64,000 bases of DNA from a virus, in IMG/VR virus record IMGVR_UViG_3300027985_000412, positions 1 to 64,000 of that record; one strand, given 5' to 3'. Below are positions 8,801 through 63,324 of the stretch, piece by piece; the stretch's first letter is position 1; the number at the start of each line of letters is the position of its first letter. Below the pieces are notes generated by a model, which did not search any database, was not told where the DNA came from, and saw only the letters and a program-made list of their open reading frames with translations. A program made the translations under genes and the position numbers.

Positions 8801-9863
8801 TGGAGATGAGTTGGTTAGAATGATTATAGAATGTCGTCCGTATCAATCAATCGACGAGTTCTTAGCTAAAGTTAAAGTGAATAAGCCTCAGATGATAAAT
8901 CTAATTAAGTCTGGTGCGTTTGACAATTTTGGCGATGGGCGCAGACCGGTTATGGAAGAATATATTCGTTCTATAAGCGACCAAAAGAAAAGAATTACAC
9001 TTCAAAATATGAAGATGTTAATTGACTTTCAGCTTTTACCGGAGAGTTTAGCTTTTGAGGTAAAGGTATTTAACTTTAATAAATATCTTAAAAAGTTTAA
9101 GTCTGGTAATTACTATGTTTTGGATGATATTGCGTTCAAGTTCTATGAAGATAATTTTGATATAGATTTAATCTTCTTTTTAGAAGAAGAGCCTGGTCAA
9201 TTAACAAGAAGGATTGAACAGACAAAATGGGATAAAATATACAATAAATACATGGATAATGTACGAGCGTATATTAAACCTAATCAGGAGAAACTTTTAT
9301 CTGAACTAAACGATAAACTTATTCAAGAATTATGGGATAAGTATTGTCTAGGAAGTATTAGTAAATGGGAGATGGATAGTGTAAGCTTCTACTCTCATGA
9401 GCATGAACTAGAATTCATAGACGATGAACGTTATGAATTTACAGATTTTTTCGACCTAGAAGAAGATCCAGTAGTTGAAAATGTTGTTATGATGAAAGGA
9501 AAGAAAGTTCCTTTATTCAAACTCTATCGAATTGCCGGAACCGTTCTAGATAAGAATAAGAACAAAAATGTTGTAACCGTATTAACAAAAAGTGGTGTGG
9601 TTAACGTTAAAGTTTGGCAAAGTCAATTCTCTAAATACGATAAACAAATAAGTGTTAAATTGGCTACTGGTAAGAAAAAAATCATTGAGAAATCTTGGTT
9701 CTCTCGTGGTAATAAAATTGCTATAGTAGGTATCCGGCGCGGAGATATGTTTGTGCCAAAGATTTATCGCTCTAGTATTTGGAGTGAGCCATTTAACTTA
9801 ATTACAAAAATTAATGAAGATGGTTCATTAGTCTTTAAGAGTGAGAGAGAGAGTGGTGATTAA
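5847..9863 (+). CDS. dnaE: DNA polymerase III alpha subunit, DnaE type
   Basis: A 1,338-residue C-family polymerase. The N-terminal PHP domain keeps its metal-ligand motifs (THAHSEYS, ALTDHEFVG, GTDAHYL), so it may still hydrolyse DNA or pyrophosphate. The palm has GPGRGSACGW (about residue 418), GDIDIDIAP (about 458, the two catalytic aspartates) and HASGVIL plus KFDFL (about 583-630, the third aspartate). The fingers contain NHSLPYSFVGIQTL. A tandem HhH region (SIDEFLAKV...LIKSGAFDNFG) and C-terminal OB-like region follow. An unusual acidic-then-basic insertion lies at about residues 882-933. It has its own consensus promoter and overlaps the next gene as TAATG. Confidence 0.92.
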   Translation: MAEKVLTRFETHAHSEYSNIRLLDCINKPKDIIQTAYNKGLSGIALTDHEFVGNAIQWLNAEKKLKKAEKISKDFKCALGNEIYLVGSRDPEKIRRYFHFILIAKNNQGHEALRKLSSIAWFHSYTSRRLLRVPTLYNELKEVMNEYKNSVMATTACLGGELPHLVFELLELEIKSKTQKGLEEQIQQKKIEISEFIKFCKDVFGEDFYIEIAPSKQNDQVNYNLRVIPIAKALGVKIVFGTDAHYLTKEDRPIHKAYLNSKEGEREVDAFYSSAHLMDYEELRALTPYLSDEQIAEFFNNSLEIMDKVEGYQLDNSPNIPTEQVKYYPKLKYDLEDKYPNIAWYLQSESDQDRYWINTVLNKAEEVGYDTIQGMERIEKEADIQRFISERLGQSMSAYHNTMQHYIDLFWECGSIVGPGRGSACGWLTNMLLGITQVDPLKWGLNEWRYLNKERVEIGDIDIDIAPSKRPLIFKEIRKQKGETGLLQICTFGTEGTRSAILTACRGYRSEEFPDGIDVDIAQYMSGMIPQERGFLWPLSDVLNGNEEKGRSPIRSFIDEVNKYPGLLDIMVKIEGLINKRSQHASGVILYNQEFYKTNALMRSPSGDLTTQFSLHDAEQVGDTKFDFLVTEVSDKIIECVKLLQEDNILESELSLREIYNKYLHPNIIPLDDDRIWKALADGSALDVFQFNSDVGLQAAKAIKPTNPFEMTAANALMRLMAEKGHERPLDRYVRMKFNTSAWYEEMNRWNLSKEQQVMLEKYYKQDYGTPPYQESVMLILMEPAISGFTLTEANDARKIIGKKQMERIPELRKKFFDKTSDKNLAAYVWETAILPQMGYSFSVNHSLPYSFVGIQTLVLAATFPDIYWNCACLIVNSGGIEDVIEEDDIEQDEKITPESLFISGGDSSEDDDEEEYDEEEESIGKKEKKKNRTTNYGKIATAIGFMASAGIIVEPPDINQSKLTFSPVLETNSIRYGLKGINKIGDELVRMIIECRPYQSIDEFLAKVKVNKPQMINLIKSGAFDNFGDGRRPVMEEYIRSISDQKKRITLQNMKMLIDFQLLPESLAFEVKVFNFNKYLKKFKSGNYYVLDDIAFKFYEDNFDIDLIFFLEEEPGQLTRRIEQTKWDKIYNKYMDNVRAYIKPNQEKLLSELNDKLIQELWDKYCLGSISKWEMDSVSFYSHEHELEFIDDERYEFTDFFDLEEDPVVENVVMMKGKKVPLFKLYRIAGTVLDKNKNKNVVTVLTKSGVVNVKVWQSQFSKYDKQISVKLATGKKKIIEKSWFSRGNKIAIVGIRRGDMFVPKIYRSSIWSEPFNLITKINEDGSLVFKSERESGD

Positions 9864-54422: not shown

Positions 54423-54480
54423 TTAGACGTGGCACGTCTAAGGTTTTCCCCTTGACTATCTTATCACTATGTGATAAGAT
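54423..54480 (+). promoter_or_regulatory. palindrome 1 with promoter and second operator
   Basis: Palindrome 54423-54441, then TTGACT (54452-54457), 17 bp, TAAGAT (54475-54480). A perfect 13-3-13 palindrome (54455-54483; arms ACTATCTTATCAC / GTGATAAGATAGT) lies over the promoter from the -35 to just past the -10. It is unique in the array and looks like the operator of another repressor. Confidence 0.85.
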
Positions 54481-54510
54481 AGTACTATCAAGAGAGGGAG
54501 GAATACCAAA

Positions 54511-54684
54511 ATGGCAACAGTCAAAACTTCGAACCTTAAGGATTACACGCGTGAGGAAGCGTACGCGATGAGTCAGACCGTCGGCAAGGCGTGGGATGAG
54601 TTCATGGCTCGCGAAGCTGAGAAGGCTGAGGAAGCCTCAGCTGAGCCGGAACCCGACGCCGAAGAGGTGGAAGGGGACGAGTAG
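54511..54684 (+). CDS. small acidic protein of foreign composition
   Basis: A 57-residue protein with GGGAGG site. A helical first half (YTREEAYAMSQTVGKAWDEFM) is followed by an acidic, Glu/Ala/Pro-rich tail. Codons are markedly GC-rich compared with the phage, suggesting recent acquisition. It is expressed from the promoter that carries an additional 29-bp operator. No family is recognised. Confidence 0.65.
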   Translation: MATVKTSNLKDYTREEAYAMSQTVGKAWDEFMAREAEKAEEASAEPEPDAEEVEGDE

Positions 54685-54686
54685 GA

Positions 54687-54770
54687 ATGAAAGAGAAGCT
54701 GAAAGCTATAGTGCTGTTAGAGCTTGCTATACTTCTGCCACTCGCCTTCGTGATACACTTCTTCTTTTAG
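54687..54770 (+). CDS. 27-residue membrane peptide
   Basis: MKEKLKAIVLLELAILLPLA and a hydrophobic end in FFF: positively charged start followed by one transmembrane helix. It starts 2 nt after the preceding stop, so it is translated by coupling; no separate ribosome-binding site apart from GGAA. The stop lies in the stem of a 14-bp hairpin. Such short single-span peptides can act as toxins, channel modulators or lysis helpers, none shown here. Confidence 0.55.
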   Translation: MKEKLKAIVLLELAILLPLAFVIHFFF

Positions 54771-54791
54771 GGGATTTTCCCCTAAAAGAAG
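54761..54791 (+). terminator. 14-bp stop-codon hairpin
   Basis: Perfect stem CTTCTTTTAGGGGA / TCCCCTAAAAGAAG with TTT loop; the TAG stop of the membrane peptide is inside the left arm. It lacks a long T-tract downstream. Confidence 0.75.
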
Positions 54792-54793
54792 TC

Positions 54794-54850
54794 TTAGACG
54801 TAATACGTCTAAGATAATCACTTGTATTTTCTTATCGTTTGGGTTATAAT
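54794..54850 (+). promoter_or_regulatory. palindrome 2 with promoter
   Basis: Palindrome 54794-54812, gap 9, TTGTAT (54822-54827), 17 bp, TATAAT (54845-54850). Confidence 0.88.
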
Positions 54851-54880
54851 AATAATACAGTAAGGAAAGGAGTTGCACAA

Positions 54881-55039
54881 ATGAGAAGTTTAGTTCGTTG
54901 CTTGCGCGCTAAATCAGAGGATGAATTTTCAGAAGGTTTCAAAGTCATAGACAAATTTTTGTCGATAATTGGTTATGGAGCTATCACAGTATTTGTTCTC
55001 TATCTCGGCGTCCACGGTGTTTTTTACCTCCTTAAGTAA
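54881..55039 (+). CDS. small membrane protein
   Basis: A 52-residue protein with AAAGGAG site. A basic, cytosolic N-terminus (MRSLVRCLRAKSEDEF) precedes one transmembrane segment (IIGYGAITVFVLYLGVHGVFYLL) at the C-terminus. No family recognised. Confidence 0.65.
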   Translation: MRSLVRCLRAKSEDEFSEGFKVIDKFLSIIGYGAITVFVLYLGVHGVFYLLK

Positions 55040-55060
55040 AAACCAAACCTTTCTATCTGT

Positions 55061-55098
55061 TACGGACGGACTTGCCACCGTCCGTATTTTTATTTTAT
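55061..55098 (+). terminator. intrinsic terminator
   Basis: Stem ACGGACGG / CCGTCCGT (8 bp, 8-nt loop) followed by ATTTTTATTTT. Confidence 0.8.
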
Positions 55099-55100
55099 TC

Positions 55101-55157
55101 TTAGACGTACAACGTCTAGGAAAAAAGGTTGTTTTTTTTTGTCGAATCGCATATAAT
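55101..55157 (+). promoter_or_regulatory. palindrome 3 (one mismatch) with promoter
   Basis: TTAGACGT-ACA-ACGTCTAG (55101-55119), gap 9, TTGTTT (55129-55134), 17 bp, TATAAT (55152-55157). This is the only copy with an altered arm base and it drives a segment without an evident gene. Confidence 0.8.
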
Positions 55158-55163
55158 ACATAT

Positions 55164-55392
55164 ATAAGGTAACAAACATACATAAATAATATCCAATACA
55201 GTAGACAAAAACCAAAAGTAACGAATGTAACCAATGTAACAAGAATGTAAAAATGGAAAAGTATTCTGTCACATTATTTCCCATATTCTGACATCAGTGA
55301 AAGAGGGAGATTTGTCAGTGCAATAGAGAAAGGATACTTTGATTCTACCGATAGAAGTCAAAATGAGCTACGTTTTAAGAAATGAGCTACGA
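55164..55392 (+). ncRNA. transcribed segment with no evident gene, short direct repeats
   Basis: No reading frame with a ribosome-binding site is visible; the only ATG frames encode 12-13 residues. The segment contains three AATGTAA units (from 55224, 55233 and 55244), an inverted pair CTGACA / TGTCAG (55288 and 55313) and two exact copies of AAATGAGCTACG (55361-55372 and 55380-55391). It may be a regulatory RNA, a protein-binding site or a decayed gene. It lies behind an intact promoter. Confidence 0.4.
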
Positions 55393-55449
55393 TTAGACGT
55401 GTAACGTCTAAAAAAATTTCTTGACTTTTATTAATGTCAATGATATAAT
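55393..55449 (+). promoter_or_regulatory. palindrome 4 with promoter
   Basis: Palindrome 55393-55411, gap 9, TTGACT (55421-55426), 17 bp, TATAAT (55444-55449), then ATCAA and AAGGAAGGGG. Confidence 0.9.
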
Positions 55450-55479
55450 TATAACATCAAAAGGAAGGGGAATAAAACA

Positions 55480-55722
55480 ATGGCAAGAAGAGGATTAAAA
55501 ATTGATTTTATGCATAAAAGTATCGAAGTATCTCATGCATACTCATTGAGGGCATCCAAATTTAATAGTTTAGAATATATTGAATTAGGATGTATAAAAT
55601 TAGACTTTCCAGATTTTGAAGTTTATGTTCTTCCTAAACAAAAAAAGAAAAAGAAAAAGAAGAAACCTTCTGTAGATGAGGTTATCGCAAAGATTTTGGC
55701 AGAAAAGGAGAATACAATATAA
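55480..55722 (+). CDS. hypothetical protein with poly-lysine tract
   Basis: An 80-residue protein. An N-terminal strand-rich part is followed by nine residues of almost continuous lysine (QKKKKKKKKPS, about residues 53-62) and a short acidic helix. The lysine tract could bind nucleic acid or membrane. It overlaps the next gene as TAATG. Confidence 0.62.
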   Translation: MARRGLKIDFMHKSIEVSHAYSLRASKFNSLEYIELGCIKLDFPDFEVYVLPKQKKKKKKKKPSVDEVIAKILAEKENTI

Positions 55723-55925
55723 TGAAAGAATGGCAAGTTGTACTTTTGGGATCTTTAATTGCTTTAGGAACAGTTGCAGGATTATTCGGTCTTTGCTTCT
55801 TAATTCCCGAAGGAGTTGGGCGCGACTCAATGATGCGTTTAGTCTCTGGATTTAGTTTCCCAATCGGTCTTGGCGCATATGCATTGACAAAATGGATACA
55901 GTATAGAAAATCTTGTGACGATTAG
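55722..55925 (+). CDS. two-span membrane protein
   Basis: A 67-residue protein with two hydrophobic segments (VVLLGSLIALGTVAGLFGLCFLI and LVSGFSFPIGLGAYALTKW) and a short charged tail. It is translationally coupled to the preceding lysine-rich protein, suggesting they work together. The TAG stop lies in the loop of a 9-bp hairpin. Confidence 0.65.
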   Translation: MKEWQVVLLGSLIALGTVAGLFGLCFLIPEGVGRDSMMRLVSGFSFPIGLGAYALTKWIQYRKSCDD

Positions 55926-55933
55926 TCACAAGA
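55911..55933 (+). terminator. stop-codon hairpin
   Basis: TCTTGTGAC-GATTA-GTCACAAGA, perfect 9-bp stem; the TAG stop spans the end of the loop. No T-tract. Confidence 0.65.
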
Positions 55934-55939
55934 ATAGTG

Positions 55940-55995
55940 TTAGACGTATCACGTCTAAGAAAACTTCTTGACTTTTTTGTATTATATGGTATAAT
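55940..55995 (+). promoter_or_regulatory. palindrome 5 with promoter of the SpoVT gene
   Basis: Palindrome 55940-55958, gap 9, TTGACT (55968-55973), 16 bp, TATAAT (55990-55995), leader TATCAAGTGAAAGG. Confidence 0.9.
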
Positions 55996-56026
55996 AGTAT
56001 TATCAAGTGAAAGGAAATAAAAAGAA

Positions 56027-56572
56027 ATGAAAGCAACAGGAATAGTAAGAAGAATTGATGAACTCGGGCGCGTGGTCATTCCGAAGGAGATTCGCAGAAC
56101 ACTTCGGATAAGAGAAGGAGATCCTTTGGAAATCTATACCGACAGAGAAGGAGGAGTCATCTTCCGGAAGTATTCTCCAGTCGGTGAGTTGAACAATCTT
56201 GCTAAAGACATGGCAAGCACTCTTGCGTCAACCACAGATTTGATGATACTCGTCACCGATATGGATTCGATTCTCGCAACGTCAGGACGTGCGCGGCGTC
56301 TTGATGGGATGCCCCTCTCGCCCATCATGATCGAGATGATTCAAAAGAGATATCCGACATGTGCGGGCCGCGAAGGTTTTGAACAGATATTTAACGTTGA
56401 TACGTTAAGTGGTTTCCTCTCTCAATTCTACGTTCAACCCATCTTGGTTGATGGTCAGCCGGTTGGTGGATTATGGTTTCTCTCCACCAAAGAAGAAGGA
56501 GTGATTCCGGCAGAGGTCAAAGAAATTGCAAAATTCGCCGTTGCGTTTCTTGAGAAACAGTTGAACAATTAA
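56027..56572 (+). CDS. spoVT: SpoVT-like sporulation transcription factor
   Basis: A 181-residue protein, essentially the length of cellular SpoVT. The N-terminal AbrB-type DNA-binding domain (residues 1-50: MKATGIVRRIDELGRVVIPK, then a RREGDPLEI-like swapped-hairpin segment) is nearly the same as in Bacillus SpoVT as I remember it. The remainder (55-178) is a GAF-like domain, diverged (MILVTDMDSILATSG, VQPILVDGQPVGGLWFLS). In the host, SpoVT modulates forespore genes late in sporulation and germination. Codons are more GC-rich than in the neighbours, fitting acquisition from a host. It is controlled by the array promoter, so the phage makes it under its own regulation. Confidence 0.92.
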   Translation: MKATGIVRRIDELGRVVIPKEIRRTLRIREGDPLEIYTDREGGVIFRKYSPVGELNNLAKDMASTLASTTDLMILVTDMDSILATSGRARRLDGMPLSPIMIEMIQKRYPTCAGREGFEQIFNVDTLSGFLSQFYVQPILVDGQPVGGLWFLSTKEEGVIPAEVKEIAKFAVAFLEKQLNN

Positions 56573-56589
56573 GGGGATTAATTCCCCTT
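56571..56589 (+). terminator. hairpin after the SpoVT gene
   Basis: AAGGGGA-TTAAT-TCCCCTT, 7-bp stem starting within the TAA stop; no strong T-tract. Confidence 0.6.
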
Positions 56590-56595
56590 AGTAAG

Positions 56596-56652
56596 TTAGA
56601 CGTGTTACGTCTAATATTTTCTCTTGATATTTTTCTCGCAATCGGTTATAAT
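56596..56652 (+). promoter_or_regulatory. palindrome 6 with promoter
   Basis: Palindrome 56596-56614, gap 9, TTGATA (56624-56629), 17 bp, TATAAT (56647-56652), leader ACTATCAAGTAGAAAAGGAG. Confidence 0.9.
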
Positions 56653-56683
56653 AATACTATCAAGTAGAAAAGGAGTTAAAACA

Positions 56684-57178
56684 ATGTCAGTCATGCACTC
56701 GATTAGCAATTGCAAGAAGATGTTAAATCATGGAATTGACCGCGCGGTGTATTACTCTCCAAAGTATGATATGATTATCAAGAAGGAAAAGCCCGGCGGT
56801 GGAGAAAGTGGAAAAGGTTGTGAAGCTCAATTCATGTATGAAAAGTCTTTTTATGAACAGCTTAGACCTGCGGAACGTATTTTCTTTCCAGTTATTGACT
56901 TTTGCGCCTACAAAGGGAGAACCGTTTGTCTTATGCATCGTTGCACCTGCTTAACTGACTTACCACAATATCAAGAGCTTAACAGCGCATTATCATTCGG
57001 CGGTTGGCGTTATTGGACAGTATCAGAATTAAGACTTATCTTTCTTACTTTGGGATTGAATACTCGTTTTGTTAAATACTTCCATAATGTCATCACTCGC
57101 TTTGGACTTCATGACTTACATCTTGGAAATCTTGGAGTTTATAATAACCATTTGGTAATTCTTGACGCGGGATTTTAA
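56684..57178 (+). CDS. miniature protein-kinase-like protein, copy 1
   Basis: A 164-residue protein with kinase landmarks in order: a short Gly-containing strand, IIK with K33 (beta-3 lysine), a possible alpha-C glutamate (E53 or E58), a catalytic-loop-like H143-D-L-H-L-G-N149 and VILD161-A-G. The final motif takes the place of DFG, and the protein ends at once, so the whole C-lobe after it is missing. It is about 60 percent of the size of a kinase domain and related to the next gene. Start 56684 follows AAAAGGAG. It might phosphorylate host proteins, bind nucleotides or be a pseudokinase. Confidence 0.6.
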   Translation: MSVMHSISNCKKMLNHGIDRAVYYSPKYDMIIKKEKPGGGESGKGCEAQFMYEKSFYEQLRPAERIFFPVIDFCAYKGRTVCLMHRCTCLTDLPQYQELNSALSFGGWRYWTVSELRLIFLTLGLNTRFVKYFHNVITRFGLHDLHLGNLGVYNNHLVILDAGF

Positions 57179-57184
57179 TCCCGC
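57167..57184 (+). terminator. stop-codon hairpin
   Basis: GCGGGATT-TT-AATCCCGC, 8-bp palindromic stem with the TAA stop inside it. No T-tract. Confidence 0.6.
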
Positions 57185-57194
57185 AGTCATAGAG

Positions 57195-57251
57195 TTAGAC
57201 GTATAACGTCTAAAAAAAAATATTGACTTTTACCAATTAATTGGATATAAT
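57195..57251 (+). promoter_or_regulatory. palindrome 7 with promoter
   Basis: Palindrome 57195-57213, gap 9, TTGACT (57223-57228), 17 bp, TATAAT (57246-57251), leader ACTATCAAGTGAAAGGGGAG. Confidence 0.9.
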
Positions 57252-57279
57252 AATACTATCAAGTGAAAGGGGAGAGATA

Positions 57280-57762
57280 ATGTCATTAATCCAATCAATT
57301 CCAAAGTTTAGAAAGAAACTTGGATACGGAATCTCAAGAGAAGCGTTTTACTCTAGAAAATATCAATGTGTAATTAAACGCTCTAGGCCGGATGGTTGTG
57401 GACATCGTCCAATTCGTTCCCAGATGTTAGCAGAGATTAACCTCTTTGAACGTATGGAAGAATCTGAAAGAGAATTCTTTCCAGTTATTGAAGTTCTTGA
57501 ATACAAAGAGGAAAAATTGATTGCTATGCATCTAATTAAACCAATCTCTTCTAATAAAGATTGGGAACAACTTTTCAATTCTTTGTGGAGATTGCAAACA
57601 GAAGAAAAGTATAACACTTTGTGCGCTCAAATTGGTCTTGACTGTTCATATAATAAGGCTTTTTGGACATTTGTTCGTAAATATCATATTGATGATTTAC
57701 ACACTGCAAATGTTGGCGTTTATAATAATCATCTTGCGATTATCGATGCCGGATTAAATTAA
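57280..57762 (+). CDS. miniature protein-kinase-like protein, copy 2
   Basis: A 160-residue paralogue of the preceding gene. Shared features: MS-x-x-x-SI start, G-I-x-R-x-x-(F/Y)-YS, VIK with K33, FFPVI, a catalytic-loop-like D138-D-L-H-T-A-N144 and IID156-A-G. E52 in AEINLFERM is a good alpha-C glutamate. As in copy 1 the sequence ends just after the DFG-like motif. The two copies have separate palindrome-promoters, so they arose by duplication of the whole cassette and have diverged greatly since. Confidence 0.6.
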   Translation: MSLIQSIPKFRKKLGYGISREAFYSRKYQCVIKRSRPDGCGHRPIRSQMLAEINLFERMEESEREFFPVIEVLEYKEEKLIAMHLIKPISSNKDWEQLFNSLWRLQTEEKYNTLCAQIGLDCSYNKAFWTFVRKYHIDDLHTANVGVYNNHLAIIDAGLN

Positions 57763-57775
57763 TCCGGTCTTTTTT
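57749..57775 (+). terminator. intrinsic terminator containing the stop codon
   Basis: CCGGATTAA-A-TTAATCCGG followed by TCTTTTTT; the TAA stop is in the hairpin. Confidence 0.82.
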
Positions 57776-57777
57776 AA

Positions 57778-57834
57778 TTAGACGTTGAACGTCTAAGATT
57801 GTCTATTGCATTTTCTATTCTCATATAGTATAAT
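57778..57834 (+). promoter_or_regulatory. palindrome 8 with promoter
   Basis: Palindrome 57778-57796, gap 9, TTGCAT (57806-57811), 17 bp, TATAAT (57829-57834), leader GTATCAAAAGGAGG. Confidence 0.9.
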
Positions 57835-57860
57835 AAGAGTATCAAAAGGAGGGTAAAAAG

Positions 57861-58148
57861 ATGATTTGGTTTAATGGAGAAATTACACCATTGGCACCGA
57901 CGTTAGTTATTGGAAAGATTCATTCTGTATCTGGTCAAAAAGAAGTTGTCTGTCGTTGGAATGGCTCAGATTTTGTGCGCGCTGGTCAAGAACTATTTGT
58001 GATTGAATGGCGTCCGTTCTCAATGGACAATGATAGTCTGTTTGCCTTCTGCTTACAGCTCATAGCAGAAAAGCACTCGCCCAATCTTTCAACAGAAAAA
58101 AGAATGGACGCGGCGTATAAATTAATGGAGGACTTGGTAATCGAATGA
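57861..58148 (+). CDS. hypothetical protein
   Basis: A 95-residue protein with AAAGGAGG site. The first half is beta-strand rich (TLVIGKIHSVSGQKEVVCRW, QELFVIEWRPF) and the second helical. The small-barrel-then-helix plan is compatible with a nucleic-acid or protein binder; no family recognised. Its TGA stop is inside a 9-bp hairpin. Confidence 0.65.
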   Translation: MIWFNGEITPLAPTLVIGKIHSVSGQKEVVCRWNGSDFVRAGQELFVIEWRPFSMDNDSLFAFCLQLIAEKHSPNLSTEKRMDAAYKLMEDLVIE

Positions 58149-58155
58149 TTACCAA
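58134..58155 (+). terminator. stop-codon hairpin
   Basis: TTGGTAATC-GAAT-GATTACCAA, perfect 9-bp stem containing the TGA stop. No T-tract. Confidence 0.65.
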
Positions 58156-58161
58156 ACCATA

Positions 58162-58217
58162 TTAGACGTTATACGTCTAATTATAACTATTGACTTTCAT
58201 TATAGATGTGTTATAAT
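58162..58217 (+). promoter_or_regulatory. palindrome 9 with promoter
   Basis: Palindrome 58162-58180, gap 9, TTGACT (58190-58195), 16 bp, TATAAT (58212-58217), leader ATATCAAATGAAGGGAG. Confidence 0.9.
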
Positions 58218-58246
58218 AAGAATATCAAATGAAGGGAGTACAGAAA

Positions 58247-58519
58247 ATGTACGTTAAAGTTGAAACAGATTGTGCCTTTGCAGGATGCAATGAAAAACAT
58301 TTGGTCGAAGTACCGGATGACATGAGCGAAGAGGAACTCAATGCAATGGTGAATGAGTATGTGCAAGCTGACATTACTCCGGAAGGTAGCTATGAGATTC
58401 TTACCGAAGAAGAAGCAGAAGAGCTTGCAGAAGATGGTTATGAATGTGAATCTTATGGTTTCGAAGTCGAACCGGATTCTGACCCGAATGAAGTTCCAGG
58501 CACAGGGGATGAGGATTAA
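58247..58519 (+). CDS. very acidic small protein
   Basis: A 90-residue protein in which about one third of residues are Asp or Glu. The pattern VKVETDCAFAGCNEKHLVEVPDDMSEEEL resembles a small phage family with a CxxxGC-type start, but I cannot name it firmly. The tail (YGFEVEPDSDPNEVPGTGDED) is disordered and acidic. The ATG at 58247 is chosen because AAGGGAG precedes it; the in-frame ATG at 58229 overlaps that site. DNA mimicry is one hypothesis. Confidence 0.65.
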   Translation: MYVKVETDCAFAGCNEKHLVEVPDDMSEEELNAMVNEYVQADITPEGSYEILTEEEAEELAEDGYECESYGFEVEPDSDPNEVPGTGDED

Positions 58520-58530
58520 TCATCCCCTTT
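58504..58530 (+). terminator. stop-codon hairpin
   Basis: GGGGATGA-GGATTAA-TCATCCCC then TTT; the TAA stop lies at the end of the loop. Confidence 0.7.
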
Positions 58531-58535
58531 CCTAA

Positions 58536-58592
58536 TTAGACGTAATACGTCTAAGATATTCACTTGCATTTTATATCTATCTATAGTATAAT
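58536..58592 (+). promoter_or_regulatory. palindrome 10 with promoter
   Basis: Palindrome 58536-58554, gap 9, TTGCAT (58564-58569), 17 bp, TATAAT (58587-58592), leader TTATCAAGGAAGGGAG. Confidence 0.9.
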
Positions 58593-58619
58593 ACTATTAT
58601 CAAGGAAGGGAGAAAAACA

Positions 58620-59018
58620 ATGAAAAAGATTTGTGATACTTATATTGACTTGGAGGCAGGAGTCTTTAACAAGAATGGTAGATTACTCTATGTTATTAAA
58701 GCGCATGTGAGTGAGAAGCTAAAGTATTGTGACGAAAGAGATGTTGACCTGATGAATGACTTCAAAGCACTTGACAAAGCTATCCAAAAATGTTACAATG
58801 GTTTCTCTGTATTCTCTGATAGCGTCTTTTCGGCGGATGGATGTGGATTCAGCTCTTATTCTGGAGTAAGTAAACGTCATTCAGTTAAGATTATTGGTTT
58901 GCGCTCTATTGCAAAACAAAACACAACTTTCTCAATGCAAGATATAATGCAAAGAATGTGTTATCTTGATATAACAGAATACGCCAAAGATAATGCGATA
59001 GCATTATTTAACAAATAG
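58620..59018 (+). CDS. hypothetical protein
   Basis: A 132-residue protein with AGGGAG site, first of two genes in this cassette. It is mixed alpha/beta with a serine-rich middle (FSVFSDSVFSADGCGFSSYSG). No family is recognised. Confidence 0.62.
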   Translation: MKKICDTYIDLEAGVFNKNGRLLYVIKAHVSEKLKYCDERDVDLMNDFKALDKAIQKCYNGFSVFSDSVFSADGCGFSSYSGVSKRHSVKIIGLRSIAKQNTTFSMQDIMQRMCYLDITEYAKDNAIALFNK

Positions 59019-59026
59019 GAGGGAAT

Positions 59027-59263
59027 ATGAAACTCTATATTGTTTGGGAAGATAATCATGGTGACGTTTCGTGGTGGACAGAAAAACATCTTGCTATCCG
59101 AGAAATGAGACGCATTATAAAATATGGATGGTGCAAGAGAGAACGCGCGCAGATTATCAAAGAGTATCGCGAAGAAAATCCAAAAAAGAGATTCCGTTGG
59201 TGGGAAGCGTTTAGCGATTGCGTTGGTTATCGCGAAGTGGAACTAAATAAAAGTTGGAATTAA
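59027..59263 (+). CDS. small basic Trp-rich protein
   Basis: A 78-residue protein with AGGAGGG site, 8 nt after the previous gene. It starts with MKLYIVWEDNHGDVSWW and is basic in the middle (RIIKYGWCKRERAQIIKEYR), with six Trp in total. No family recognised. The TAA stop is in the loop of a 9-bp hairpin. Confidence 0.62.
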   Translation: MKLYIVWEDNHGDVSWWTEKHLAIREMRRIIKYGWCKRERAQIIKEYREENPKKRFRWWEAFSDCVGYREVELNKSWN

Positions 59264-59272
59264 TCCAACTTT
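59250..59272 (+). terminator. stop-codon hairpin
   Basis: AAAGTTGGA-ATTAA-TCCAACTTT, perfect 9-bp stem with the TAA stop in the loop; followed by C. Confidence 0.68.
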
Positions 59273-59277
59273 CATAC

Positions 59278-59334
59278 TTAGACGTTTGACGTCTAACAAT
59301 CAAAATTGACTTTTTAATTAATTTGTGTTATAGT
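59278..59334 (+). promoter_or_regulatory. palindrome 11 with promoter
   Basis: Palindrome 59278-59296, gap 9, TTGACT (59306-59311), 17 bp, TATAGT (59329-59334). Confidence 0.88.
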
Positions 59335-59362
59335 AATAATAGAAAATGAAAGGGGAAAGAAA

Positions 59363-59542
59363 ATGGTTAATTTAACAAAGAGAAAGAAAACTCCGGTTGA
59401 GCAGATTAGAAATGAGGTTGCCAAACTGGGCGGTTCAAGCGTCCTTTCGGACACTTCCTTGCTAACAATAGTTGGGGGACTTGAGAAAACTTATCCTGTG
59501 GTGATTGAGTTTGGCTCGAAATATGCCCTCGAAGAGGTGTGA
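59363..59542 (+). CDS. small hypothetical protein
   Basis: A 59-residue protein with AAAGGGGAAAG site. It begins MVNLTKRKKTPVEQIRNEVA (basic helix), followed by a Gly-rich turn and strands (LLTIVGGLEK, PVVIEFGSKYALEEV). No family recognised. Its TGA stop is exactly the first triplet of the loop of a 9-bp hairpin. Its cassette structure is complete. Confidence 0.65.
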   Translation: MVNLTKRKKTPVEQIRNEVAKLGGSSVLSDTSLLTIVGGLEKTYPVVIEFGSKYALEEV

Positions 59543-59553
59543 GCCACCTCTTC
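59531..59553 (+). terminator. stop-codon hairpin
   Basis: GAAGAGGTG-TGAGC-CACCTCTTC: perfect 9-bp stem with the TGA stop in the loop. No T-tract. Confidence 0.7.
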
Positions 59554-59558
59554 CCTAG

Positions 59559-59615
59559 TTAGACGTTCAACGTCTAAGTTTTCTCCTTGACTTTTATTAT
59601 TAATTATAGTATACT
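59559..59615 (+). promoter_or_regulatory. palindrome 12 with promoter
   Basis: Palindrome 59559-59577, gap 9, TTGACT (59587-59592), 17 bp, TATACT (59610-59615). Confidence 0.9.
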
Positions 59616-59642
59616 AATAATAATGAAAGGGAGGGTTATAAA

Positions 59643-59849
59643 ATGAAAAAGTTTATTGCAAGAAATTTTCCCTGTGTGATTGCAGGACTTCTCACCTTAG
59701 TTCTAACTGCCGCATTTATGGCGATAGCATCCTTAATCACAGCCTGCTCTGATGGAGCTATTGGTATCATCTGCTTTAGTGCTGCGTTCGCTTGTACAAT
59801 TCCCGCGTATACATGGATGGAAAGAATCTCCAAGAAATATTACTCTTAA
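59643..59849 (+). CDS. two-span membrane protein
   Basis: A 68-residue protein with AAAGGGAGGG site. A basic start (MKKFIARNF) is followed by two transmembrane segments (VIAGLLTLVLTAAFMAIASLI and IGIICFSAAFACTIPAY) and a basic tail (MERISKKYYS), implying both ends are cytosolic. No family recognised. Confidence 0.66.
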   Translation: MKKFIARNFPCVIAGLLTLVLTAAFMAIASLITACSDGAIGIICFSAAFACTIPAYTWMERISKKYYS

Positions 59850-59866
59850 CGTACCATAGGTACGTT
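59848..59866 (+). terminator. hairpin overlapping the stop codon
   Basis: AACGTACC-ATA-GGTACGTT, 8-bp stem beginning inside the TAA stop; no T-tract. Confidence 0.62.
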
Positions 59867-59870
59867 ATAG

Positions 59871-59927
59871 TTAGACGTATTACGTCTAAGAAAATCTCTT
59901 GACGTTCTTTTTCTTGTATGATATACT
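59871..59927 (+). promoter_or_regulatory. palindrome 13 with promoter
   Basis: Palindrome 59871-59889, gap 9, TTGACG (59899-59904), 17 bp, TATACT (59922-59927). Confidence 0.9.
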
Positions 59928-59956
59928 AAGTACATAAAGTGAAGGGAGTACAAAAC

Positions 59957-60421
59957 ATGAACACAAAAACAATCTACTTTGATATGGACGGAACAATCGC
60001 AAATTTGTATGGTGTAAGAAATTGGTTGCCGCGTTTGCGGTCAGAGGATGCTACACCATATCTGGAAGCTGAACCCATGTGCGATATGGTAAGAGTTATT
60101 GAATTGCTTGAAGCTCTCTGCGCTCAAGGGTATCGAATCGGGATTATAAGCTGGCTATCTATGGGAGCTTCAAAAGCCTATAAGAAAGAAGTCACGCGCA
60201 ACAAAAAGCGATGGCTCAACCAAGAAATGCCAATCGAATTTGACGAGATGCATTTCATACAATATGGTACACCCAAACACCGCGTTGCGCGGGATAAATT
60301 CGGAATCATCATTGATGACAGCTCCGAAGTGAGGGCTGGATGGGAAAAGCGTAATAACCGCATAGCGGTTGACCCGGCAGAAATGCCAATAGAAAATTTC
60401 CTCCTTTCCCTTCTATCTTGA
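59957..60421 (+). CDS. HAD-family phosphatase, nucleotidase-like
   Basis: A 154-residue HAD hydrolase. Motif I is FDMDGTIANL (nucleophile D9, acid D11). Motif II serine is in IISWLS, the motif III lysine is probably one of KKEVTRNKK, and motif IV is GIIIDDSSEV. Small phage HAD enzymes of this size are often 5'-deoxynucleotidases or polynucleotide phosphatases. The start at 59957 follows AAGGGAG; the in-frame ATG at 59939 overlaps that site. Likely cytosolic nucleotide or RNA/DNA-end metabolism. Confidence 0.78.
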   Translation: MNTKTIYFDMDGTIANLYGVRNWLPRLRSEDATPYLEAEPMCDMVRVIELLEALCAQGYRIGIISWLSMGASKAYKKEVTRNKKRWLNQEMPIEFDEMHFIQYGTPKHRVARDKFGIIIDDSSEVRAGWEKRNNRIAVDPAEMPIENFLLSLLS

Positions 60422-60428
60422 TAGAGGT

Positions 60429-60451
60429 CGAGTGGCAATAATTGTCACTCG
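60429..60451 (+). terminator. hairpin after the HAD gene
   Basis: CGAGTGGCAA-TAA-TTGTCACTCG, 10-bp stem with one G:U pair, 7 nt after the stop. Confidence 0.62.
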
Positions 60452-60461
60452 GCTTCTAGGA

Positions 60462-60518
60462 TTAGACGTCATACGTCTAACTATTTCTGTTGACACTATT
60501 AATAGGGTATGATATAAT
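60462..60518 (+). promoter_or_regulatory. palindrome 14 with promoter
   Basis: Palindrome 60462-60480, gap 9, TTGACA (60490-60495), 17 bp, TATAAT (60513-60518): the best promoter of the array. Confidence 0.92.
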
Positions 60519-60546
60519 AAAGACAATAAAAGAAAGGAAAACTAAA

Positions 60547-60819
60547 ATGAAAGCGAGGAATATTATGGGTAGTTATCGAGTAAAGAGAGGATACAGTAAC
60601 GCGGCAGTTGGTCTTGGATGTTTGGGAATCATTATGTTGGTTCTTCTGATGTGCGCTGTATCTGCTTTCTTGGGCGGACTGATCGTCTATCTTCTGTGGA
60701 ACGCACTTGTTCCGGTTCTGTTTGGCGGTGTCGTCATAACATACTGGACTGCGGTTCTTATCGGTCTTGCTCTTGGATTCATCGGCAGTATTTTCACGGT
60801 TCGAGTAAAGGGGAGTTGA
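60547..60819 (+). CDS. membrane protein
   Basis: A 90-residue protein with AAAGGAAAA site; an in-frame ATG at 60490 lies in the promoter and is rejected. A basic N-terminus (MKARNIMGSYRVKRGY) is followed by two or three transmembrane segments separated by short Gly-rich turns. No family recognised. Confidence 0.65.
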   Translation: MKARNIMGSYRVKRGYSNAAVGLGCLGIIMLVLLMCAVSAFLGGLIVYLLWNALVPVLFGGVVITYWTAVLIGLALGFIGSIFTVRVKGS

Positions 60820-60830
60820 TTCCCCTTTCT
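60807..60830 (+). terminator. stop-codon hairpin
   Basis: AAAGGGGA-GTTGAT-TCCCCTTT, 8-bp stem with the TGA stop in the loop, followed by CTTAG. Confidence 0.7.
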
Positions 60831-60833
60831 TAG

Positions 60834-60889
60834 TTAGACGTAGCACGTCTAATCTTTCTTCTTGACTTTTATTATTATTGTGATATAAT
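60834..60889 (+). promoter_or_regulatory. palindrome 15 with promoter
   Basis: Palindrome 60834-60852, gap 9, TTGACT (60862-60867), 16 bp, TATAAT (60884-60889). Confidence 0.9.
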
Positions 60890-60918
60890 AAAGATAATAA
60901 AAGAAAGGGGAAAACAAA

Positions 60919-61329
60919 ATGTTCACAGGTATTTTAGTAGGTATCGGTATCTCTCAGTTAATCTGTTTCTTGGTTTTCGTGCTTACTCATGAGGATGAGA
61001 TGAAGGCAATGCTTGCAGGCGGAGGAATCTTTCTGTTGCCTGTTAAATGGCTCTTTATGCTAATGAGAGCTATTTGGAAAGCATATGTTAATCACACATA
61101 TACTGTCTATAAGGTCTGCGGCGTCAACGAAAACTTTTGGAATCAGTATGTCAGATTGAAAAAGAAATGGTTTGACAATTACTACCACGAAGGAGAAAAT
61201 GATTACTATATCGAGGAGTATTTGGAACCGAAAAACAAACCACATAATTATGACCCTTTACGGAAACTTCCCGGCAATGGATGGTGGAATCAGGAATGGG
61301 TTAATAAGAATCTATTAAAAGAGTCGTGA
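60919..61329 (+). CDS. membrane-anchored protein
   Basis: A 136-residue protein with AAAGGGGAAA site. Two hydrophobic segments at residues about 3-23 and 33-50 are followed by an 85-residue soluble, Trp/Tyr/Asn-rich domain (NENFWNQYVRLKKKWFDNYY, GNGWWNQEWVNKN). No family recognised. Confidence 0.65.
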   Translation: MFTGILVGIGISQLICFLVFVLTHEDEMKAMLAGGGIFLLPVKWLFMLMRAIWKAYVNHTYTVYKVCGVNENFWNQYVRLKKKWFDNYYHEGENDYYIEEYLEPKNKPHNYDPLRKLPGNGWWNQEWVNKNLLKES

Positions 61330-61340
61330 GACTCTTTTTT
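61317..61340 (+). terminator. intrinsic terminator containing the stop codon
   Basis: AAAAGAGTC-GTGA-GACTCTTTT plus TT; the TGA stop lies in the loop. Confidence 0.85.
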
Positions 61341-61342
61341 AG

Positions 61343-61398
61343 TTAGACGTAATACGTCTAAGAAAAAGTCTTGACTTCTATGCTCAATATGTTATAAT
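61343..61398 (+). promoter_or_regulatory. palindrome 16 with promoter
   Basis: Palindrome 61343-61361, gap 9, TTGACT (61371-61376), 16 bp, TATAAT (61393-61398). Confidence 0.9.
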
Positions 61399-61405
61399 GA
61401 TATTG

Positions 61406-61425
61406 TGGTTGAGGGAAATCAACCA
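61406..61425 (+). promoter_or_regulatory. 5'-leader hairpin
   Basis: TGGTTGA-GGGAAA-TCAACCA at the predicted transcript start of the winged-helix-like gene, separated by 15 nt from its AGGAGG site. This is the only accessory cassette in which a leader hairpin was noticed. Confidence 0.6.
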
Positions 61426-61451
61426 ACAAAAAAAAATTAGGAGGCCTTACG

Positions 61452-61820
61452 ATGGCAGACAAGAAAATGACACAGAGGGAATTTTTTACAGCGGTGAAGG
61501 AAGCAAATCTTTCCAAGGAAATGACAGATTTTGCCGAAGCGGCAATTGCGGCTCTCGATAAGAGGAACGCGGCAAGACAGGCACAGCCGAGCAAAAAGGA
61601 AGTCGAGAACGAACCGATCAAAGCGGCTCTCGCGGCAATCGTCACGGGCGCAGGAAAAGCCATGATTGCAAAGGATATCACAGCGGCATACAACGCGGCG
61701 AACGCGGATGCCCAGATTACCACGCAGAAAGTTTCTGCTCTCCTGCATCAGCTTGTGGACGCTGGCACGCTCAAGAAGGGCGAACCTGTCAAAAAGACGC
61801 TGACCTATATCGGCGCATAG
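61452..61820 (+). CDS. winged-helix-like protein
   Basis: A 122-residue, Ala/Lys-rich protein with a clear AGGAGG site. The N-terminal half is a helical region with a charged linker (RQAQPSKKEVENEP). The C-terminal half (TAAYNAANADAQITTQKVSALL, then LVDAGTLKKGEPVKKTLTYIG) has the helix-helix-recognition-helix plus beta-wing arrangement of small DNA-binding proteins. GC-rich codons set it apart from its neighbours. It is the best visible in-array candidate for a DNA-binding regulator, but nothing links it directly to the palindrome. Confidence 0.65.
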   Translation: MADKKMTQREFFTAVKEANLSKEMTDFAEAAIAALDKRNAARQAQPSKKEVENEPIKAALAAIVTGAGKAMIAKDITAAYNAANADAQITTQKVSALLHQLVDAGTLKKGEPVKKTLTYIGA

Positions 61821-61822
61821 TG

Positions 61823-61848
61823 AAAGGGGATTTATCCCCTTTTTTTAG
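61823..61848 (+). terminator. intrinsic terminator
   Basis: AAAGGGGA-TTTA-TCCCCTTTTTTT, 2 nt after the stop. Confidence 0.88.
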
Positions 61849-61905
61849 TTAGACGTTATACGTCTAATAATTAGTATTGACTTCTCTTATCTAATATGTT
61901 ATAGT
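61849..61905 (+). promoter_or_regulatory. palindrome 17 with promoter of the structured RNA
   Basis: Palindrome 61849-61867, gap 9, TTGACT (61877-61882), 17 bp, TATAGT (61900-61905). Confidence 0.9.
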
Positions 61906-61911
61906 TATATT

Positions 61912-62212
61912 GTCGAGAGGGAAAAGAGTACGGTGCGCAACGTATCCACATTGGCCGTGTGGCCTTCCGAATAGGTTATCCCCATGTGCCGAATAAGACT
62001 GAGGGCGGTTCGATACCGTTACTGGCTAACGGATGGTGAGTTCAACCGATGAAACCTATGGGCCGAAGAGTTATGCGCCCCGCAGAATGCAAGGCTCCGC
62101 GTTAGACGCTAAGTGACTTAGCCTTGGAATACGAAAAGGCAACCTCCGAGAGGGAGCCAGGAGGAATAGGCTCCAGCTATATAAGGTATCTCCATTTGAG
62201 ATACCTTATTTA
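61912..62212 (+). ncRNA. structured non-coding RNA of unknown family, about 300 nt
   Basis: A promoter at 61877-61905 and a terminator hairpin at 62183-62207 delimit a segment with no credible gene. Visible helices: GGTGCG (61932) with TGCGCC (62074); CCACA/TGTGG (61946/61958); ATAGGTT (61971) with AACCTAT (62053), a 7-bp long-range helix; CGGTT/AACCG (62006/62044) enclosing CCGTTA/TAACGG (62016/62027); GCCTT/AAGGC (62121/62136); GGAGCC/GGCTCC (62153/62169). CGG-TTCGATA-CCG at 62006-62018 has a tRNA T-loop-like sequence that competes with one helix. GC content is clearly higher than in neighbours. I cannot assign a known class. It is not tmRNA, RNase P or 6S by motif. A raiA-like or other large Firmicute RNA should be tested. 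Confidence 0.8.
62183..62212 (+). terminator. terminator of the structured RNA
   Basis: AAGGTATCTC-CATTT-GAGATACCTT, perfect 10-bp stem, followed by ATTTACTT. Confidence 0.8.
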
Positions 62213-62213
62213 C

Positions 62214-62270
62214 TTAGACGTGATACGTCTAAGATTCTCTCTTTACAATCTCTTAACATTATGTTATACT
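62214..62270 (+). promoter_or_regulatory. palindrome 18 with promoter
   Basis: Palindrome 62214-62232, gap 9, TTTACA (62242-62247), 17 bp, TATACT (62265-62270). Confidence 0.88.
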
Positions 62271-62299
62271 ATCTATAATGAAAGAAGGAGGAAAAGGGA

Positions 62300-62773
62300 A
62301 TGGAAAATATTTGGATTTTTATAGTCGCTCAATTAATCAATGTTGTGTTAGGAACAATGCGATCGGTACTGACAATTCGTTCCAGTCAAAATGTGGCAGC
62401 TATCATTAATGCTGTGAGCTTCACCTTTTATGCAGGTGTTGTTAAGATGATAACTGGTCAAGAAATGTGGCTCGTTTTAGTAGTAACATTTATTACCAAT
62501 ATCATCGGCGTTTATGTTGCTATGTGGATTGTGAAGAAATTTAGTAAAGACAAGATATGGAAAATCACAATTACGACAGAGTTTGAAGATGTTAAAGATT
62601 GGATTTGTGAAGGATTGGAAAAATATAATCTTGGTTATTCTTCAATCGAAATTGAATCGGGTTATGTGATTGATGCATATTCATACACGCAAAACGAAAG
62701 TTTATTGATTAAGGAAGTAATTTCCAAACATAAAGTAAAATACTTCGTTACTGAAATGAATAAGACTTTATAA
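62300..62773 (+). CDS. UPF0316/DUF5698-like membrane protein
   Basis: A 157-residue protein. Three hydrophobic segments fill the first 80 residues (IFIVAQLINVVLGTMRSVLTI, IINAVSFTFYAGVVKMI, MWLVLVVTFITNIIGVYVAMWI). A cytosolic alpha/beta domain follows, with helix-strand units typical of DUF2179-like tails. The arrangement and the early LGTMRSVLTIRSSQ motif match the UPF0316 family (YebE type) of Firmicutes, whose function is unknown. Ribosome-binding site AAGGAGG. The TAA stop lies in a hairpin. Confidence 0.68.
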   Translation: MENIWIFIVAQLINVVLGTMRSVLTIRSSQNVAAIINAVSFTFYAGVVKMITGQEMWLVLVVTFITNIIGVYVAMWIVKKFSKDKIWKITITTEFEDVKDWICEGLEKYNLGYSSIEIESGYVIDAYSYTQNESLLIKEVISKHKVKYFVTEMNKTL

Positions 62774-62779
62774 GTCTTA
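62761..62779 (+). terminator. stop-codon hairpin
   Basis: TAAGACTT-TAT-AAGTCTTA, 8-bp stem; the TAA stop spans loop and right arm; no strong T-tract. Confidence 0.62.
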
Positions 62780-62793
62780 TTCAATTTCAATTA

Positions 62794-62850
62794 TTAGACG
62801 TAGTACGTCTAAGAAAATAATTTGACTTTTTAAAATTTTTCTGATATAAT
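62794..62850 (+). promoter_or_regulatory. palindrome 19 with promoter
   Basis: Palindrome 62794-62812, gap 9, TTGACT (62822-62827), 17 bp, TATAAT (62845-62850). Confidence 0.92.
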
Positions 62851-62880
62851 AAATTTAGAAAGTGAAGAAAGGAGAAAAAA

Positions 62881-63249
62881 ATGGCAGTTTCCAAAAAGTC
62901 CCTCAACGAAAAATTCAAAATGAAGGTGTTGGAAATGGTTTCCAATTTCCTCAAGGATGAAGGTGAGGATATTGTCCGCACAAAAAGCGGTGAAATTGCT
63001 TTTCCTTTTGTGAATGAAGCAGGGGATGATGAATGGATGAAAATTACATTTAGTGTACCTGCTGGCTCGCGTGATGGTGAACCGTTCGACGGTTACGGCG
63101 AAGCTGAAAGCTATGCAATGAGTATAGCAAGCAAAAAGGAAAAAGCGGCCACAGCGGCGGCGGCTAAGGAAAAGAAAATCCTTAAAGACACACAACAAAG
63201 AGCCAAGAAAGCGGAGAATCTGCGGAAGGCTCAAGAGGGTGGGGAGTAA
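62881..63249 (+). CDS. conserved-looking phage protein of unknown function
   Basis: A 122-residue protein with AAAGGAG site. Residues 1-80 are compact (EDIVRTKSGEIAFPFVNEAGDD, ITFSVPAGSRDGEPFDGYGEA). Residues 85-122 form a highly charged Ala/Lys/Glu helix. I have the impression that similar proteins occur in phages of gut Clostridia, but cannot name a family. The TAA stop lies in the loop of a GC-rich terminator hairpin. Confidence 0.65.
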   Translation: MAVSKKSLNEKFKMKVLEMVSNFLKDEGEDIVRTKSGEIAFPFVNEAGDDEWMKITFSVPAGSRDGEPFDGYGEAESYAMSIASKKEKAATAAAAKEKKILKDTQQRAKKAENLRKAQEGGE

Positions 63250-63267
63250 TCCCCATCCTTTTTTTTA
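63238..63267 (+). terminator. intrinsic terminator containing the stop codon
   Basis: GGTGGGGA-GTAA-TCCCCATCC (one bulge) followed by eight or more T; the TAA stop is the loop. Confidence 0.85.
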
Positions 63268-63324
63268 TTAGACGTGATACGTCTAAGAAAAAGCGTTGAC
63301 TTCCTTTATATTGTATGTTATACT
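63268..63324 (+). promoter_or_regulatory. palindrome 20 with promoter
   Basis: Palindrome 63268-63286, gap 9, TTGACT (63296-63301), 17 bp, TATACT (63319-63324), leader CTATCAAATGAAGGG. Confidence 0.92.

What the first reader, a model, noticed from the sequence alone, without database searches (positions are those of the whole stretch)
61912..62212. Large structured RNA within the regulon
A cassette carries an RNA instead of a gene: same palindrome and promoter, about 300 nt, at least seven compatible helices including a 7-bp long-range helix (61971-61977 with 62053-62059), T-loop-like CGG-TTCGATA-CCG, own terminator. GC content is well above its surroundings. Large structured phage RNAs are rare and usually of unknown function. 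Given SpoVT nearby, comparison with the sporulation-linked raiA-motif RNA of Clostridia is worthwhile; I cannot confirm a match by eye.
Basis: partly seen in the sequence, partly recalled or inferred. Interest (0 to 1): 0.8.

Follow-up and report, generated by a model that had tools for sequence, protein, structure and literature searches.

The report
Phage early-region noncoding RNA, conserved hairpin
A bacterial virus, probably of gut Clostridia, carries an RNA-only cassette among its co-regulated early genes; the RNA matches no known family, but related viruses make other RNAs with the same hairpin (fixed 8-base loop, swapped stem pairs), so it is very likely a real RNA gene of unknown function.

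Summary
The cassette is real. A palindrome (61849-61867), a good sigma-70-type promoter and a predicted start at G61912 lead into about 270 nt with no usable ORF, closed by a hairpin and the next palindrome. Rfam, phages, plasmids, 391 Clostridia genomes and about 185 phage records held no homologue of the whole RNA. raiA, ROOL, GOLLD and OLE are not supported. One element is strongly supported. Hairpin 61928-61945 (stem UACG/CGUA, loop GUGCGCAA) recurs in seven other phage loci with re-paired stems: all five pairs change on both sides. In the 37 regulon contigs all four GUGCGCAA copies inside ORF-less transcripts form the hairpin, against 0 of 28 elsewhere (P = 3e-5). The window RNA belongs to a wider, undescribed set: 25 of 212 short cassettes in sister phages have no ORF of 30 codons, and one sister cassette carries a mini-tmRNA-like RNA. 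Best reading: an early, trans-acting, fast-changing phage RNA whose constant hairpin is its recognition site (host-factor binding/decoy or loop-loop dimer). Being a real RNA gene: about 0.9. Decoy mechanism: about 0.35.

The parts
61849..61867 (.). palindromic operator-like site TTAGACGT-TAT-ACGTCTAA of the RNA cassette
   Evidence: 20 copies in the window, 0 expected; ends 9 nt before the -35; gaps of 9/19/29/39 nt across 414 promoters
61877..61905 (+). promoter TTGACT - 17 nt - TATAGT (TG before the -10)
61912..62180 (+). noncoding RNA body (predicted start G61912; no usable ORF)
   Evidence: no Rfam match
61913..61920 (+). 5' strand of candidate closing helix P1 (UCG-A-GAGG)
   Evidence: pairs with 62143-62149, P 0.8-0.99 in the thermodynamic model, but not below shuffles (z +0.8); architecture resembles the sister RNAs; unproven for this RNA
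61928..61945 (+). conserved hairpin: stem 61928-61932/61941-61945, invariant loop GUGCGCAA 61933-61940 containing the palindrome UGCGCA
   Evidence: shared by eight RNAs with covarying stems
61971..61977 (+).
   Evidence: present in the MFE, P 0.44; no rarer than chance; unproven
62008..62020 (+). T-loop-like CGG-UUCGAUA-CCG
   Evidence: sequence only; no comparative support
62143..62149 (+). 3' strand of candidate closing helix P1
62153..62174 (+). hairpin GGAGCC...GGCUCC
   Evidence: P 0.99 in the model; no comparative support
62181..62209 (+). terminal 12-bp hairpin, probable (weak) terminator
   Evidence: U tract weak, not listed
62214..62232 (.). palindrome of the next cassette (end of the RNA cassette)

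Best explanation
The cassette is a stand-alone RNA gene of a virulent-looking siphophage, probably of gut Clostridia. It is switched on with about 24 neighbouring small-gene cassettes by one palindrome-binding regulator, presumably early in infection. The product is a noncoding RNA of about 270-300 nt that acts in trans. Near its 5' end it displays a hairpin whose 8-nt loop, GUGCGCAA, is fixed while the stem is free to change, so the loop is the part that is recognised. The most likely job is to engage a host factor (a protein or ribonucleoprotein) and titrate or misdirect it, as the protein cassettes around it are presumed to do; the rest of the RNA is a fast-evolving scaffold. Shown: cassette anatomy, absence of an ORF, shared covarying hairpin, the same kind of RNA cassette in sister phages. 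Inferred: transcription, timing, trans action. Conjecture: host-factor binding or decoy.
For: Anatomy and lack of ORF. Sister phages with the same operator: 25 of 212 palindrome-flanked cassettes of 80-420 nt have no ORF of 30 codons or more, in 17 contigs, and most are unlike each other, as expected for accessory, conflict-type loci. The hairpin is shared by eight otherwise dissimilar RNAs; seven of them place it within about 75 nt of a promoter start, while the eighth (L411, with a near-identical allele L479) lies after an F1-type gene. Covariation: 97.5% of cells paired, 15 double changes against 4.4 in shuffles. Unbiased test: 4 of 4 copies in ORF-less transcripts form the hairpin, against 0 of 28 elsewhere, P = 2.8e-5. 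No loop was shared by 3 RNAs in 100 shuffled sets (loops of 7 nt or more). One sister cassette holds a mini-tmRNA-like RNA (acceptor, T arm, CCA; Rfam tmRNA 36.2 bits, E 5.6e-13, below the 47-bit cut-off), consistent with host-RNA mimicry in this regulon.
Against: No transcript data. No homologue of the whole RNA, so nothing outside the hairpin has comparative support; body energy is not below shuffles. The alignment was assembled from hits with at least 4 pairs, so its pairing percentage is inflated by selection (the contingency test is not). No binding partner is known. Several sister RNAs lie directly before the next promoter or gene (L186, L295), which would also fit a cis-acting leader. 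A loop with a 6-nt palindrome is equally suited to RNA-RNA kissing.
Confidence: 0.38

Rival explanations
1. Loop-loop dimer or oligomer: the loop G-UGCGCA-A carries a 6-nt self-complementary core that kisses another copy, so the RNA works as a homodimer or RNA-only assembly, as the phage RNAs ROOL and GOLLD do.
For: The invariant loop contains the palindrome UGCGCA in all eight RNAs. The only TGCGCA of the phage record flanked by 5 pairs with one base on either side is in this RNA. Phage RNAs GOLLD and ROOL, and OLE, form homo-oligomers stabilised among other contacts by kissing loops (PMC12286853).
Against: A random 8-nt loop contains a 6-nt palindrome about 5% of the time. True self-kissing loops should tolerate other palindromes, but only UGCGCA was seen with this loop. 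Size and fold differ from ROOL and GOLLD, and there is no Rfam match.
Confidence: 0.25
2. Cis-acting leader RNA: it modifies RNA polymerase (antitermination, as HK022 put RNA) or protects or processes the transcript so that downstream cassettes are read.
For: The hairpin lies right after the promoter in seven of eight cases. Several sister RNAs run straight into the next promoter or gene, and their 5' ends pair with the CCCTTGAC of the next -35 (L295). RNA-only antitermination is known in phage HK022 (PMC9378689, abstract only).
Against: The window RNA is followed by its own hairpin and by a complete palindrome and promoter for the next gene, so read-through is not needed. One copy (L411) lies after a gene, not after a promoter. 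put sequences were not compared here.
Confidence: 0.2
3. Antisense or base-pairing RNA: the loop pairs with a fixed UUGCGCAC target in a host or phage RNA.
For: A fixed loop sequence on a variable stem is also what a base-pairing seed looks like.
Against: E. coli 16S, 23S and 5S rRNA, tRNA-Ile and tRNA-Ala contain neither the loop sequence nor its complement. The true host and its targets are unknown.
Confidence: 0.1
4. Not a functional RNA: a decayed cassette or spacer of chance composition.
For: Body not more stable than shuffles; the proposed 7-bp helix is no rarer than chance; no homologue of the whole sequence.
Against: Conserved covarying hairpin, intact promoter and operator, GC well above the neighbourhood.
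Confidence: 0.07

Closest known systems
ROOL and GOLLD (phage-borne ornate RNAs)
   Same: Noncoding, encoded by phages, unknown function; self-complementary loops matter there and may matter here
   Different: About 270-300 nt instead of roughly 580 to over 800; no covariance-model match; not in a tRNA island; one of many small co-regulated cassettes
raiA motif RNA (RF03072)
   Same: A few hundred nt or less, GC-rich for its surroundings, probable host in Clostridia
   Different: No match at any score; not next to raiA
HK022 put RNA
   Same: Phage early RNA at the very start of transcripts
   Different: put is a short cis element ahead of genes; this is a separate cassette with its own end hairpin; sequences not compared
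tmRNA/tRNA mimics carried by viruses
   Same: One sister RNA cassette (L012) is a mini-tmRNA-like molecule
   Different: The window RNA has no acceptor stem or CCA end; only an isolated T-loop-like sequence

Membership tests
raiA motif RNA | score above the Rfam RF03072 gathering cut-off | tested here: not met
   no hit
ROOL / GOLLD / OLE | Rfam covariance-model match | tested here: not met
   all 4227 families
ROOL / GOLLD / OLE | homo-oligomer through conserved intermolecular contacts | not testable with these tools
   a palindromic loop is only suggestive
tRNA / tmRNA | acceptor stem, T arm and CCA called by ARAGORN or Rfam | tested here: not met
GUGCGCAA-hairpin RNA set (proposed here) | 8-nt loop GUGCGCAA on a stem of at least 4 pairs within 75 nt of a promoter start in an ORF-less transcript | tested here: met
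   loop begins 21 nt after the predicted start, 5 pairs; 4 of 4 against 0 of 28
GUGCGCAA-hairpin RNA set (proposed here) | 5' end pairs with 3' end to close the RNA | tested here: inconclusive
   P1 is predicted but no better than shuffles for the window RNA; clear in some sisters

The most novel reading that the evidence does not exclude
Gut phages of Clostridia keep, under one palindrome-coupled early promoter type, a fast-changing arsenal of RNA effectors alongside small protein genes: many unrelated structured RNAs, some mimicking host RNAs (mini-tmRNA, odd tRNA), and a set that shares a palindromic-loop hairpin used for dimerisation or for binding one conserved host target. That would be an RNA counterpart of anti-defence gene islands.
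Probability: 0.22. Interest if true: 0.87.

Novelty: new variant of a known kind. Interest (0 to 1): 0.62.

Why it matters
Few phage noncoding RNAs have a testable handle. Here is an undescribed set in many phages, with a defined conserved element, a defined promoter and operator, and natural re-paired variants, so binding partners and function can be tested directly. If the RNAs counter host defence or host RNA machinery, they would add RNA to the list of phage effectors, which so far is almost entirely proteins.

Tried and rejected
Whole-RNA homologues: blastn of phages and plasmids, exact 19-mer in viral contigs, local blastn and nhmmer on sister loci, search of about 185 phage records and 391 Clostridia genomes: only chance-length matches, apart from the hairpin itself. 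Thermodynamic support for the full fold: rejected. A general excess of palindromic loops is discarded, because long inverted repeats and terminators create it. L185/L189 (SD plus GTG start) and L409 (terminator of a gene) carry GUGCGCAA between paired bases but were not counted. A match of CCGAAG-GTTATGCG to L043/G006 was judged chance. L414 matches a tRNA-rich stretch and is unrelated. A complement of the loop inside the same RNA (pseudoknot) occurs in 2 of 8 RNAs only.

Full report
WHAT IS THERE. The window lies in a 67.3-kb virus record of a phage whose terminase is closest to those of large siphophages such as Geobacillus E3, an Alicyclobacillus phage and Enterococcus phages (below 60% identity). 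From 54423 to 65893 the record carries 25 copies of TTAGACGTNNNACGTCTAA, nearly all upstream of a sigma-70-type promoter. The cassette at 61849 has the palindrome, TTGACT-17-TATAGT and a predicted start at G61912. What follows has no ORF of 30 codons or more on either strand and no start with a good ribosome-binding site. It ends in a 12-bp hairpin (62181-62209) with a weak U tract, then the next palindrome. The RNA has 54% GC where the regulon averages 39%.

THE PROPOSED FOLD. Energy alone does not support it: the body (61912-62184) folds at -79.2 kcal/mol against -82.0 +/- 4.9 for dinucleotide shuffles, and perfect 7-bp helices number 2 against 1.6 expected. So the fold is a hypothesis, except for one element.

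SISTER PHAGES. The palindrome brought in 60 stretches of IMG/VR; 36 contigs were read largely whole, giving about 410 cassettes. Most encode small proteins, with four recurrent families: an exonuclease-like F0, a winged-helix-like F1 (both judged from sequence only), a HAD-like F2, and F3 (weak HAD matches). Among 212 palindrome-flanked cassettes of 80-420 nt, 25 have no ORF of 30 codons, in 17 contigs; a few of these are probably genes whose start was misplaced. Most are unlike one another. Among the regulon loci tested, Rfam finds only a tRNA. Related operators and starts occur in other phage contigs. In the genome collection the contigs that carry several copies of the operator are mostly Clostridia and gut MAG contigs from ruminants, which is the basis for the probable host.

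THE CONSERVED HAIRPIN. The window RNA has UACG-GUGCGCAA-CGUA at 61929-61944, extended by G61928-U61945. The same 8-nt loop on a different stem stands in G017, G021 and G035, L186 and L375, L478 and L411/L479. In the 37 regulon contigs all 32 distinct occurrences of the 8-mer were examined without selection: the 4 in ORF-less regulon transcripts all have at least 4 flanking pairs, none of the 28 others does (Fisher P = 2.8e-5; background 2.1%). In shuffled RNA sets no loop of 7 nt or more was shared by three RNAs in 100 trials. In the 8-sequence alignment all five pairs change on both sides, with 15 double changes against 4.4 in shuffles, and slid registers pair at 22-40% against 97.5%. This last figure is inflated, because sequences were chosen for having a stem. 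In seven of the eight the hairpin lies within about 75 nt of the transcription start; L411 lies after an F1-type gene, as the window RNA also follows an F1 gene.

ARCHITECTURE OF THE SET. Several sister RNAs start GUCAAGGG/GUUCCAAGGG and close on themselves by pairing of the 5' end with a 3' segment, which in some (L295, G026, G039) is also the -35 of the next promoter. 29% of ORF-less or long-leader transcripts show unusual 5' pairing, against 11% of coding ones. For the window RNA the corresponding helix (61913-61920/62143-62149) is predicted but not significant.

MECHANISM. A fixed loop on a free stem near the 5' end, in RNAs that otherwise turn over quickly among accessory early cassettes, points to a recognition element. 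Three readings fit: a protein or RNP ligand or decoy (favoured, because sister cassettes are accessory-type and one carries a mini-tmRNA-like RNA), a kissing dimer (UGCGCA is self-complementary; ROOL and GOLLD give the precedent, PMC12286853), or a cis leader such as HK022 put (PMC9378689, abstract). The separate end hairpin and downstream promoter argue for trans action here. None of these steps has been shown.

AGAINST KNOWN FAMILIES. No Rfam family matches at gathering or meaningfully at E<=10 (the two hits listed are chance). raiA was tested directly and is absent. tRNA and tmRNA are absent. No annotated phage or plasmid, nor any of 391 Clostridia genomes, holds a homologue. A literature search found no paper describing such a set, within the open-access library only; the loop sequence gave no relevant paper among the ten listed of 15 that contain it.

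VERDICT. A real, undescribed phage RNA gene with one well-supported hairpin and an otherwise unproven structure. The wider set of RNA cassettes is the more interesting observation.

Noticed in passing
37 regulon contigs, 414 promoters; window 54423-63286: The gap from palindrome to -35 clusters at 9, 18-19, 28-29 and 39-40 nt, i.e. steps of one helical turn: the bound regulator seems to face RNA polymerase, as an activator would.
   Followed up: partly
L012:6026-6121 (minus strand): A mini-tmRNA-like RNA (acceptor stem, T arm GUGGGUUCGACUCCCAC, CCA end, no mRNA-like part) in a palindrome-driven cassette; Rfam tmRNA 36.2 bits, below the cut-off.
   Followed up: partly
L052 about 9500-9600 (G026): tRNA-Tyr-like RNA with an odd T loop (GUCGGCA) and CCA, not called by ARAGORN nor by Rfam as tRNA, inside another RNA cassette.
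   Followed up: partly
L295:2500-2800: Two tandem RNAs, each starting GUCRAGAGGG and closing on CCUCUUGAC, which is also the -35 of the next promoter.
   Followed up: no
L422-L485 and others: A second operator type, TTAGATGTNNNACATCTAA, drives the same style of cassettes in further phages.
   Followed up: no
leaders of F1-family genes, e.g. G010_10609, G019_3312, G032_2780: A conserved GC-rich leader GGGUGGCGACC...CGCC...GCACUAAGGUGC-AGAAAGGA of about 80 nt before F1 genes: a likely regulatory leader.
   Followed up: no
G007_5420, G011_9530, G019_4762, G021_19359 and others (about ten contigs): A second recurrent ORF-less RNA family of about 200 nt with GA-rich conserved blocks (GUACCGAAAGGGAAAUAAGAA), 68-99% identical between phages: good material for covariation.
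   Followed up: no
window 55101-55393: Another cassette without an ORF, AT-rich and not structured (z 0.12), with a repeated AAATGAGCTACG near its end.
   Followed up: no
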